This document shows positions 32,756 through 34,970 of a stretch of 64,000 nucleotides of DNA, one piece after another. The position numbers were made by a program, and so were the translations under genes. Position 1 is the stretch's first letter. Each line of letters opens with the position of its first letter. Under the pieces are notes generated by a model. It ran no database searches and had not been told where the DNA came from. It saw only the letters and a list, made by a program, of their open reading frames with translations. The stretch is from Petrimonas sp. (GTDB lineage: Bacteria > Bacteroidota > Bacteroidia > Bacteroidales > Dysgonomonadaceae), in the NCBI GenBank assembly GCA_012839475.1, contig DUNG01000023.1, forward strand, positions 186,001 to 250,000, in the 5' to 3' direction.

Positions 32756-32826
32756 GGTACCTTGACCGAGTGGCTAGGTAGCGGTCTGCAAAACCGTTTA
32801 CGGCGGTTCGAATCCGCCAGGTACCT
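32756..32826 (+). tRNA. tRNA-Cys (anticodon GCA)
   Basis: Acceptor GGTACCT/AGGTACC, anticodon arm GCGGT-CTGCAAA-ACCGT, T arm GGCGG-TTCGAAT-CCGCC, discriminator T. Confidence 0.93.
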
Positions 32827-32827
32827 C

Positions 32828-32874
32828 AACACGAGCCCCCCGATACCAGTAAGCGGTATCGGGGGGCTCGTGTT
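32828..32874 (+). terminator. Perfect 20-bp-stem hairpin immediately 3' of tRNA-Cys, probable terminator
   Basis: aacacgagccccccgatacc-agtaagc-ggtatcggggggctcgtgtt. Confidence 0.7.
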
Positions 32875-33105
32875 GTTCTTTTCCTTTCCATGTAAATCAT
32901 TACTTTTGAACATTAGAATGATTTTCAAGATAAAAATCATTACTTTTGACTATTACACCTCATTTTCATATTTAGGGACAAAAGAAGATGTGAATATGGA
33001 GCTGGCCAAGAAATCTTTATCTCTTTTTAAACATTACACGCGGAAAACAAAAACGTTTGACTTCGGAATGGTTGAGAAAATAAATCAATAAACACGTTTA
33101 TTACA

Positions 33106-33273
33106 TCATGAATAAAAAACTCGTTTTAATTTATATGCTACTTCGTAACCGTTTACCCAAGTCGGCAAGGATTTCCCGCTTTCTATATATCCTTCTTTTG
33201 AAAATTCCAACGATTCGATAATGGCTTTTTTCACGCCATCGAACGTGCGATGAGTGGCTACTACTGCCTCTGT
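33106..33273 (-). pseudogene. Truncated HicB-like antitoxin remnant
   Basis: EAVVATHRTFDGVKKAIIESLEFSKEGYIESGKSLPTWVNGYEVAYKLKRVFYS resembles the HicB core (ATGxTxxEVKxxIxEALEFxxEG...LPxxxxGxYEVxYK); lacks both ends. Confidence 0.5.
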
Positions 33274-33293
33274 TGTTTGTAAAATTATTGGGG

Positions 33294-33319
33294 AAAAGTA
33301 AACGAATTTGTTTACTTTT
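33294..33319. promoter_or_regulatory. Putative operator palindrome for the HTH/AbiEii TA operon
   Basis: AAAAGTAAAC-GAATTT-GTTTACTTTT, 10-bp perfect arms; immediately upstream of TATCTTTG (33322-33329) and ATG 33350. Confidence 0.7.
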
Positions 33320-33349
33320 ATTATCTTTGTCGAAAATAGATATGGAACA

Positions 33350-33790
33350 ATGAATAATCGCATCGAAATACTTAAAGGCATTCATCCGGGCAGGTTAATT
33401 GAGCGTGATTTAAAAAAACGATCCGTGACTCAACGTTCTTTGGCTGGGAAAACGAATATTCACTACCAAACGATTAACGCGATTATTGGCGGCAAAAGGG
33501 ATTTAACAATAGAGCAAGCCATCGAAATAGAAAAAGCGATGGGCTACGAATACGGTTTCCTGTCGCTTTTGCAAACCCATTATGCCCTGCGAAATTATCG
33601 AGACAAAGAGCTTTCCGCTCTTTTTTCAGGTACGCCTAATATTCGGAAATCTCTATTTTGGGATGCCGATTTCGATAAAATAAATTGGGCGGAACATAAA
33701 AAAGCGGTTATCAACCGAGTTATGGAGCGAGGTAACAAAGCTGAAATAAAAGAAATCAGACGATTTTATAAATTAGTTCCACATGAATAA
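33350..33790 (+). CDS. HTH-type antitoxin with DUF6922-like C-terminal region
   Basis: HigA/XRE-like HPGRLIERDLKKRSVTQRSLAGKTNIHYQTINAIIGGKRDLTIEQAIEIEKAMG; C-term IRKSLFWDADFDKINWAEHKKAVINRVMERGNKAEIKEIRRFY. Confidence 0.82.
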   Translation: MNNRIEILKGIHPGRLIERDLKKRSVTQRSLAGKTNIHYQTINAIIGGKRDLTIEQAIEIEKAMGYEYGFLSLLQTHYALRNYRDKELSALFSGTPNIRKSLFWDADFDKINWAEHKKAVINRVMERGNKAEIKEIRRFYKLVPHE

Positions 33791-34469
33791 AAAAACGGAT
33801 AAATATCTTTATTATGAAACTGTTACTCGGCAATTGAAAGAGATGCTCCAAACATTGATGCAGGAGCCGTTATTTAAACCATTCTGTTTAGTGGGAGGAA
33901 CATCACTCAGTTTGCGATTAGGACATAGGAGGTCAGTAGATATAGACCTTTTCACCAACGTCTCCTATGGCAGTTTGGATTTTTCACTTTTCGAGAATTA
34001 CTTTGAGCGAAACTTTCCTTATTGCTCTTGTATCGACAGTACAGACATCGTGGGATTCGGTCGATCGTACTTTATCGGGCGTTCTAAAGCGGATGCTGTT
34101 AAAGTTGATTTGTACTATCGCAATGAGATATCGGATTCCCTTGAGGTAATCGACGGGATACGTATGGCCAGTATTCCCGACATAATCGCCATGAAAGTGG
34201 ATGTAATATCCCGAGGAGGACGAAAAAAAGATTTTTGGGATATACATGAATTACTGAACAGATATTCTGTACAGGAAATGTTTCAAATTCATCAACAACG
34301 ATATAAGTATACCCACGATAGAGAAGAAGTGATTACTGCTTTTGTCGATTTTTCTACTGCAGATGAAGACTTCAACCCTATTTGTTTAAAGAATAAGGCT
34401 TGGGAACTCGTAAAATTGGATATCGTGGAGGCGATTGATGAAATGGCGAAACAGAAGGCACCCAAATGA
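33783..34469 (+). CDS. AbiEii/AbiGii-type nucleotidyltransferase toxin
   Basis: LVGGTSLSLRLGHRRSVDIDLFTN nucleotidyltransferase motif; 8-nt overlap with upstream antitoxin gene. Confidence 0.87.
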   Translation: MNKKTDKYLYYETVTRQLKEMLQTLMQEPLFKPFCLVGGTSLSLRLGHRRSVDIDLFTNVSYGSLDFSLFENYFERNFPYCSCIDSTDIVGFGRSYFIGRSKADAVKVDLYYRNEISDSLEVIDGIRMASIPDIIAMKVDVISRGGRKKDFWDIHELLNRYSVQEMFQIHQQRYKYTHDREEVITAFVDFSTADEDFNPICLKNKAWELVKLDIVEAIDEMAKQKAPK

Positions 34470-34625
34470 ATCAGGAGAAATAAATTACTTTGCCTTTCAA
34501 CGAGACAACCGCGGTTCCAACTGCCCCGCCCGTCCACAATACTCTTTATTGTCAGGTAGATTGGAGTCTGTAGATAATGAATTTAGACTCAAAGGATATC
34601 ACGTGGTGTCTCTATAATAGGGCGA

Positions 34626-34970
34626 TCAAGCGTCTTTTGGCTCTGTCGGCTCTTTGGGTTCTTTTGGCTCCTTTTCACGGAACGCGTCGGCCACTTTCCG
34701 GTAGTTCTCTTTCCACGCTTCGGCTACCGATCCGAAGAAGCTGCCCGCGCTCTCCCGGATCACGCTCCACCTCCCTTCGGTCATGCGTTCGTACTCCTTT
34801 AGCTTCGATGCCAGCTTGTCCCTCGTCTCCTTCAGCTTGTCCAGTTGCTCCCGGTACTCCTCTTTCTTGTCGTCCGCTATCTCGTTGGCTTTCTCCTCGA
34901 GTTTGTTAATCCTGTCGGCCAAATCATTTACAATTTGGTACGTTTTCTCTTTGAAGTCATCTTTTTTCAT
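34626..34970 (-). CDS. Hypothetical coiled-coil protein with EPK-repeat tail
   Basis: 114 aa, heptad-rich LADRINKLEEKANEIADDKKEEYREQLDKLKETRDKLASKLKEYERM..., tail EKEPKEPKEPTEPKDA. Confidence 0.7.
   Translation of the reverse strand: MKKDDFKEKTYQIVNDLADRINKLEEKANEIADDKKEEYREQLDKLKETRDKLASKLKEYERMTEGRWSVIRESAGSFFGSVAEAWKENYRKVADAFREKEPKEPKEPTEPKDA

What the first reader, a model, noticed from the sequence alone, without database searches (positions are those of the whole stretch)
33350..34469. Variant AbiE-like system: HTH/DUF6922 antitoxin coupled to an AbiEii nucleotidyltransferase
The antitoxin position is not a classical AbiEi winged-helix protein. It is a HigA/XRE-type HTH fused to a C-terminal module (SLFWDADFDKINWAEHKKAVINRVMERGNKAEIKEIRRFY) that I recognise as DUF6922-like. 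The 8-nt overlap (ATGAATAA) implies translational coupling. Established: AbiEii/MenT toxins are nucleotidyltransferases, and MenT proteins can modify tRNA 3' ends. Inference: this is a phage-defence/TA architecture whose neutralisation mode (protein binding vs repression only) is not settled. It is the best candidate in the window for an under-described system.
Basis: partly seen in the sequence, partly recalled or inferred. Interest (0 to 1): 0.7.

Follow-up and report, generated by a model that had tools for sequence, protein, structure and literature searches.

The report
DUF6922 antitoxin paired with AbiEii/MenT-like toxin
Two overlapping bacterial genes look like a toxin-antitoxin pair in which a DNA-binding protein carrying a small, uncharacterised module (DUF6922) both shuts down its own operon through a conserved palindrome and probably restrains a tRNA-modifying-type toxin; the toxin is of a known kind, but this kind of antitoxin has not been described in the papers I could search.

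Summary
In detail: a 146-aa HigA-fold HTH + DUF6922 protein (33350-33790) overlaps by 8 nt a 228-aa AbiEii/MenT-type nucleotidyltransferase with intact catalytic residues (33783-34469). The pair lies in an AT-rich insertion of about 1.7 kb behind tRNA-Cys that at least seven congeners lack. It is not classical AbiE: no AbiEi match; the genome's three other AbiEii genes sit behind different, AbiEi-like genes.

New evidence. (1) In 396 Bacteroidota genomes, 34 of 45 scorable DUF6922 loci adjoin such an NTase. DUF6922 occurs alone (clade B) or fused to an HTH (clade A), so DUF6922, not the HTH, is the constant partner. In that sample, orphan or broken pairs lose the NTase, never DUF6922. (2) The NTase tree separates the two architectures (100/100); one clade-A member lost its HTH. 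(3) All 21 HTH-DUF6922 loci carry a palindrome TAAnC-N6-GnTTA at the promoter; 0 of 28 HTH-less loci do. Its variable base tracks the recognition helix. (4) A tethered AlphaFold model places both proteins as one body (pTM 0.81).

Most likely: a TA module, antitoxin acting by binding and by autorepression; tRNA target and autophosphorylation are inferred. Phage defence is not supported by neighbourhood. New variant of a known kind.

The parts
33294..33319 (.). Palindromic operator AAAAGTAAACGAATTTGTTTACTTTT; 16-bp core TAAACGAATTTGTTTA at 33299-33314
   Evidence: inverted repeat, 12 of 13 pairs; same site class in front of 21 of 21 HTH-DUF6922 loci and 0 of 28 HTH-less DUF6922 loci; AGTAAAC-N6-GTTTACT with up to one mismatch occurs once in the 3.39-Mb genome
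33322..33329 (+). TATCTTTG, match to the Bacteroidota -7 promoter element TAnnTTTG, 7 nt downstream of the operator core
   Evidence: sequence; same kind of element close to the operator in relatives L026, L035, L037, L041; consensus from general knowledge, no start-site mapping
33350..33790 (+). Antitoxin gene: HigA-fold HTH + DUF6922, 146 aa
   Evidence: AlphaFold model pLDDT 87.5, HTH half matches HigA of Proteus vulgaris (Foldseek E 3.5e-4)
33404..33553 (+). HTH domain, residues 19-68
   Evidence: Pfam HTH_3 E 3.4e-7; NCBIfam HigA TIGR02607 E 8e-11 but below its cut-off
33641..33772 (+). DUF6922 module, residues 98-141, proposed toxin-neutralising part
   Evidence: Pfam PF21956 E 1.1e-20; constant partner of the NTase across loci
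33783..34469 (+). Toxin gene: AbiEii/MenT-type nucleotidyltransferase, 228 aa, catalytic residues intact
   Evidence: Pfam AbiEii E 1e-16; invariant GGT 38-40, GHR 47-49, S51, D53, D55, K138, K149, D150; profile matches JHP933 4o8s E 1.2e-6 and MenT1 8an4 E 0.064
32830..34640 (.). AT-rich inserted segment (about 38% G+C against 50-63% for most of the flanking genes) between tRNA-Cys and a conserved minus-strand ORF; both ends approximate
   Evidence: seven congeners have only about 65-140 nt there; no terminal repeat found
32756..32827 (+). tRNA-Cys (GCA), left neighbour of the insertion

Best explanation
It is a chromosomal toxin-antitoxin module. The second gene encodes a MenT/AbiEii-type nucleotidyltransferase toxin that probably adds nucleotides to tRNA 3' ends and stops translation (inferred from family). 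The first gene encodes its antitoxin. The C-terminal DUF6922 module binds the toxin and keeps it inactive, by covering the active site and possibly by promoting phosphorylation of the toxin's invariant Ser51 as in MenAT1/MenAT3 (inferred). The N-terminal HigA-like HTH binds, as a dimer, the single palindrome in the operon's promoter and represses it (strongly supported by sequence, not shown experimentally). The 8-nt gene overlap fits coupled translation of the two proteins.
For: DUF6922 is adjacent to an AbiEii-type NTase in 34 of 45 scorable loci (of 46) in 396 Bacteroidota genomes, with or without the HTH. Asymmetric decay in that sample: about 11 DUF6922 genes without NTase and 2 next to broken NTases (L005, L042), against no NTase of the subfamily at 95 bits or more without a DUF6922 or DUF6922-like partner. 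HTH-linked NTases form one clade at 100/100, with the HTH-less L020 inside it. Operator in 21/21 HTH loci, 0/28 HTH-less loci including L020, chance 0.005 per upstream region; variable half-site base A, G or C goes with recognition-helix Q-T-I/L, Q-T/S-F or Q-R-I in 20 of 21 loci and differs from A in both half-sites in 5 loci. Catalytic residues intact (PMC10435456). Tethered antitoxin-toxin model of the Pedobacter relative L041: pLDDT 89.9, pTM 0.81, toxin half matching JHP933, MenT3, MenT1, MenT4. Also on Bacteroidota plasmids.
Against: No toxicity, binding or repression was measured. The model was a single chain with the stop codon read as Gln, so the contact could be forced by the tether, and no coordinates or aligned-error matrix were available to inspect the interface. 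NTase distances follow the HTH (r 0.78) more closely than DUF6922 (r 0.51), which does not favour DUF6922 as the contact. Classical AbiEi and AbiEii do not bind each other (PMC3985639), and MenT2 is not detectably toxic on overexpression (PMC10435456).
Confidence: 0.72

Rival explanations
1. Type IV behaviour as in classical AbiE: the antitoxin does not bind the toxin; it represses the operon through the HTH, and the C-terminal module protects cells indirectly (for example by protecting or repairing the target).
For: AbiEi and AbiEii of Streptococcus agalactiae do not interact in co-IP or co-purification, and the AbiEi C-terminal domain alone suffices for protection (PMC3985639).
Against: DUF6922 has no match to the AbiEi C-terminal domain, is only 40-50 residues long, as small as the MenA1 pieces that neutralise MenT1 by binding (PMC10435456), and HTH-less DUF6922 partners are common. 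The tethered model puts the two proteins together.
Confidence: 0.15
2. Repression only: ORF1 is a plain autorepressor and the NTase is kept harmless by low expression; DUF6922 is just a dimerisation module of the repressor.
For: Clear conserved operator in all HTH-bearing loci.
Against: Clade B and L020 keep DUF6922 without any HTH and without the operator, so DUF6922 cannot be merely an accessory of the repressor; DUF6922 next to the NTase is conserved throughout.
Confidence: 0.07
3. The NTase is not a toxin but a modifying enzyme with a transcriptional regulator, for example a metabolic or antibiotic-modifying NTase.
For: AbiEii-type domains are diverse and MenT2 shows no detectable toxicity (PMC10435456).
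Against: Patchy distribution, insertion behind a tRNA, presence on plasmids, lone antitoxins and broken NTases beside intact DUF6922 but no lone NTases in the sample, and structural match to MenT toxins.
Confidence: 0.06

Closest known systems
AbiE (AbiEi/AbiEii), type IV toxin-antitoxin and phage abortive-infection system
   Same: AbiEii/DUF1814 nucleotidyltransferase as second gene of a two-gene operon; antitoxin first; promoter with inverted repeat; antitoxin with DNA-binding N-terminus and separate C-terminal module
   Different: Antitoxin is a HigA-fold HTH + DUF6922, not a winged-helix COG5340 AbiEi; one palindrome instead of two 23-bp repeats; no evidence of phage defence; interaction state unknown
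MenAT1 of Mycobacterium tuberculosis (Rv0078A/Rv0078B)
   Same: MenT-type NTase fold and catalytic residues; small helical antitoxin encoded upstream; DUF6922-only clade B has the same layout (short antitoxin without DNA-binding domain)
   Different: MenA1 and DUF6922 are not related by sequence at the sensitivity used; here an HTH is fused on, which MenA1 lacks
MenAT3/MenAT4 (COG5340-type antitoxins)
   Same: NTase fold; invariant Ser two residues before the first catalytic Asp (Ser51 here, Ser78 in MenT3)
   Different: MenA3/MenA4 have a winged HTH and a larger C-terminal domain; no match here
HigBA (HigA antitoxin)
   Same: HTH half has the HigA fold and sequence (4mct, 33% identity)
   Different: Toxin is an NTase, not a RelE-like RNase HigB; ORF1 lies below the NCBIfam HigA cut-off and has an extra C-terminal module

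Membership tests
AbiE (type IV TA) | AbiEii/DUF1814 NTase with conserved motifs | tested here: met
   Pfam AbiEii above cut-off; GGT...GHRxSxDxD, KxD, AMK and KDFWD motifs conserved
AbiE (type IV TA) | AbiEi (COG5340-type) winged-helix antitoxin with its C-terminal domain | tested here: not met
   ORF1 matches HTH_3 and DUF6922, no AbiEi family in Pfam, NCBIfam or PADLOC; the other three AbiEii of this genome lie behind other, AbiEi-like genes (read by eye)
AbiE (type IV TA) | Two-gene operon, antitoxin first | tested here: met
   8-nt overlap, same strand
AbiE (type IV TA) | Antitoxin autorepresses through inverted repeats in the promoter | tested here: inconclusive
   One conserved palindrome at the promoter, AbiEi uses two 23-bp repeats (PMC3985639); binding itself not measured
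AbiE (type IV TA) | Toxin and antitoxin do not interact | not testable with these tools
   Tethered model suggests contact but is not a test
MenAT nucleotidyltransferase TA systems | MenT fold and catalytic residues (T/S39, D41, K137, D152 of MenT1) | tested here: met
   S51, D53, K138, D153 by profile alignment; Foldseek on relative L041: MenT3, MenT1, MenT4
MenAT nucleotidyltransferase TA systems | tRNA 3'-end nucleotide transfer | not testable with these tools
   needs biochemistry
MenAT nucleotidyltransferase TA systems | Antitoxin of the MenA1, MenA3 or MenA4 type | tested here: not met
   No AbiEi-type match in Pfam; DUF6922 profile hits no MenA chain in the PDB at E up to 1 among the 60 shown
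HigBA | HigA-type HTH antitoxin | tested here: inconclusive
   TIGR02607 41.6 bits against a cut-off of 47.7; HigA fold by Foldseek
HigBA | RelE-like RNase toxin HigB | tested here: not met
   Partner gene is an AbiEii NTase
DUF6922 (PF21956) | Match above the Pfam gathering score | tested here: met
   73.3 bits against 27

The most novel reading that the evidence does not exclude
DUF6922 is a separate antitoxin class for AbiEii/MenT-type toxins, and it neutralises by making the toxin phosphorylate its own invariant Ser51, as MenA1 does to MenT1, while in clade A a fused HigA-type HTH turns the same protein into a sequence-specific autorepressor that could sense the toxin:antitoxin ratio. This would make antitoxin-triggered autophosphorylation a convergent principle across unrelated antitoxins.
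Probability: 0.25. Interest if true: 0.7.

Novelty: new variant of a known kind. Interest (0 to 1): 0.5.

Why it matters
AbiE/MenT-type toxins are very widespread, but their antitoxins are known mainly as COG5340-type winged-helix proteins and the short MenA1. The census assigns a likely role to an unnamed Pfam family (DUF6922) as the constant partner of such toxins in Bacteroidota, with natural variants (module alone, module plus HTH, HTH lost again) that separate neutralisation from transcriptional control. The palindrome that changes with the recognition helix gives ready-made DNA-binding tests, and the small module is a good test case for whether antitoxin-induced autophosphorylation is general.

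Tried and rejected
First fusion alignments (A4, A6) smeared the fragments and were replaced by A7. Generic palindrome scoring of upstream regions was too noisy and replaced by the explicit half-site pattern. Mirror-tree correlation gave no support for DUF6922 as the contact domain (HTH tracks the NTase better), possibly because the module is short; not used as support. PDB hits of the DUF6922 profile (Pumilio, casein kinase II) are weak matches judged spurious. Phage collection: no match to ORF1. tRNA-directed integration with a repeated tRNA end: no shared 12-mer at the two ends. Sigma-70 scan: no excess over shuffles, as expected for Bacteroidota promoters. PADLOC scan of neighbours: 3 models hit (PD-T4-9_C twice, PDC-M43B), one member each, so no defence-island signal. 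An internal copy of the half-site pattern at 33875-33890 inside the toxin gene is compatible with chance (3 matches in the window, 0.87 expected, 6 of 100 shuffles as many).

Full report
What is there. ORF1 (33350-33790, 146 aa) and ORF2 (33783-34469, 228 aa) overlap by ATGAATAA. ORF1 is HTH_3 plus DUF6922 (E 1.1e-20), ORF2 is AbiEii (E 1e-16). NCBIfam puts the HTH near HigA but below that family's cut-off, PADLOC finds AbiEii but no AbiEi, and PDB sequence hits of ORF1 are mostly HigA-type antitoxins.

Where it sits. The segment has about 38% G+C where most of the flanking genes have 50-63%, directly behind tRNA-Cys. In the congener G397 the order radA - tRNA-Cys - minus-strand 114-aa ORF - adk - obg is the same, but the pair is missing: about 140 nt separate the tRNA from the aligned start of the conserved block, against about 1.85 kb in the window. 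Six more congeners (L083, L084, L085, L090, L091, L092) have tRNA-Cys beside the same block without room for the pair. In the 24 congeners searched the best match covering most of the NTase is 36-38% identical, i.e. not an ortholog. So the pair was gained as an insertion of about 1.7 kb; no terminal repeat was found, and the mechanism is open.

Not classical AbiE. The same genome holds three other AbiEii genes, each preceded by a different gene that reads as an AbiEi-like winged-helix protein by eye (not scanned). ORF1 differs from these.

DUF6922 is the constant partner. In 396 Bacteroidota genomes DUF6922 occurs at 46 places in 38 genomes. I read all 46 loci: 34 have an AbiEii-type NTase directly adjacent on the same strand (two of these NTases are broken: L005 frameshifted, L042 with an internal stop; in two loci the NTase comes first), one is cut by a contig end, 11 have none. 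In most loci DUF6922 is a small protein without HTH but with a conserved C-terminal tail; in the others it is fused to the HTH. The reverse search with the NTase profile over the same genomes finds 34 matches at 95 bits or more; all but G264:C7 coincide with DUF6922 loci, and G264:C7, like the weaker matches read, has a small adjacent gene that resembles DUF6922 but is below detection. The profile was built from DUF6922-linked NTases, but the search would have found equally close NTases elsewhere. The skew (lone DUF6922 genes and broken NTases in that sample, no lone NTase) is what one expects if the NTase is the toxin and DUF6922 the antitoxin.

One HTH clade, one later loss. The NTase tree splits HTH-DUF6922-linked from DUF6922-only NTases with 100/100 support; L020, whose partner is an 85-aa DUF6922 protein without HTH, lies inside the HTH clade, so it most likely lost the HTH. 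It also lacks the operator.

Operator. In front of ORF1 lies AAAAGTAAACGAATTTGTTTACTTTT. Every one of 21 distinct HTH-DUF6922 loci, from chromosomes, plasmids and a viral contig, has TAAnC-N6-GnTTA in the region upstream of the HTH; none of 28 HTH-less DUF6922 loci has it; chance is 0.005 per upstream region. In the whole genome the site (up to one mismatch) is unique. The variable half-site base is A in 14 loci, G in both halves in 3, G in one half in 2, C in both halves in 2. It follows the residues at the start of the recognition helix: Q-T-I/L with A (14 of 15; L037 has G), Q-T/S-F with G (4 of 4, two of them in one half only), Q-R-I with C (2 of 2, both plasmid copies). These counts are not corrected for relatedness (L005 and L042 share a genome; L079 and L080 are close). 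Both half-sites differing together in L006, L012, L037, L079 and L080 argues for a symmetric dimer. A TAnnTTTG element, the Bacteroidota -7 box (general knowledge), lies 7 nt downstream of the core, so binding should block the promoter.

Toxin. Invariant in 32 relatives: GGT, GHR, S51, D53, D55, K138, K149, D150. By profile alignment with MenT1 S51, D53, K138 and D153 are the counterparts of T39, D41, K137 and D152, of which D41, K137 and D152 are needed for toxicity (PMC10435456). S51 is the position phosphorylated in MenT1 and MenT3 (PMC11375011). Solved relatives by sequence: JHP933 (4o8s, E 1.2e-6) and, weakly, MenT1 (8an4, E 0.064).

Structure. The antitoxin alone is confident (pLDDT 87.5) but its two domains are loosely placed (pTM 0.66); the HTH half matches HigA. 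A 383-residue chain made of the Pedobacter relative's antitoxin and toxin, with the intervening stop read as Gln and a disordered tether (residues 154-167), gives pLDDT 89.9 and pTM 0.81. The toxin half matches JHP933, MenT3, MenT1 and MenT4, the HTH half HigA; no listed match is to DUF6922.

Literature and naming. DUF6922 occurs in no open paper of the library. No described system of this architecture turned up in five further searches; subscription papers and preprints are not covered. In three plasmid records read, NCBI annotation calls the pair a helix-turn-helix protein and an AbiEii/AbiGii toxin family protein, so the toxin is recognised automatically and the antitoxin is not.

Function. 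A TA module is the best reading. Phage defence is possible by family but has no support here: of ten neighbours scanned in relative loci most are metabolic or regulatory genes, and defence models hit few of 37 neighbours. Presence on Bacteroides, Phocaeicola and Microscilla plasmids fits replicon maintenance at least as well.

Shown: architecture, conservation, operator pattern, catalytic residues, insertion. Inferred: toxicity, direct binding through DUF6922, autorepression, tRNA target, Ser51 phosphorylation.

Noticed in passing
window 33112-33290, minus strand: Fragment (about 55 aa) 66% identical to the middle of a 133-aa HicB-like protein with C-terminal HTH elsewhere in the genome (G000:C23); its N- and C-terminal parts are missing, so it looks like the remnant of another antitoxin gene beside this pair.
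   Followed up: partly
L036:1299-1430 and L036:1426-2233: In Seramator thermalis a second, near-identical copy of the HTH-DUF6922 operator and promoter lies about 110 nt in front of what reads as a minimal nucleotidyltransferase/HEPN gene pair, 3.2 kb upstream of its own HTH-DUF6922 gene: possible cross-regulation or a deletion scar.
   Followed up: no
L025:1450-2034: DUF6922 fused to a C-terminal segment that resembles UPF0175-type antitoxins (by eye), with no NTase next to it.
   Followed up: no
L044:852-1900 and L032:1387-2467: Reversed gene order: NTase first, DUF6922 second.
   Followed up: no
L069-L073 (genus g61 genomes): NTases with a 103-aa partner gene downstream that shows a DUF6922-like pattern below detection; DUF6922 may be part of a larger antitoxin superfamily.
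   Followed up: partly
L079:896-2113: The B. fragilis plasmid carries another AbiEii-type gene about 2 kb from the HTH-DUF6922 pair and tet(X) about 3 kb downstream.
   Followed up: no
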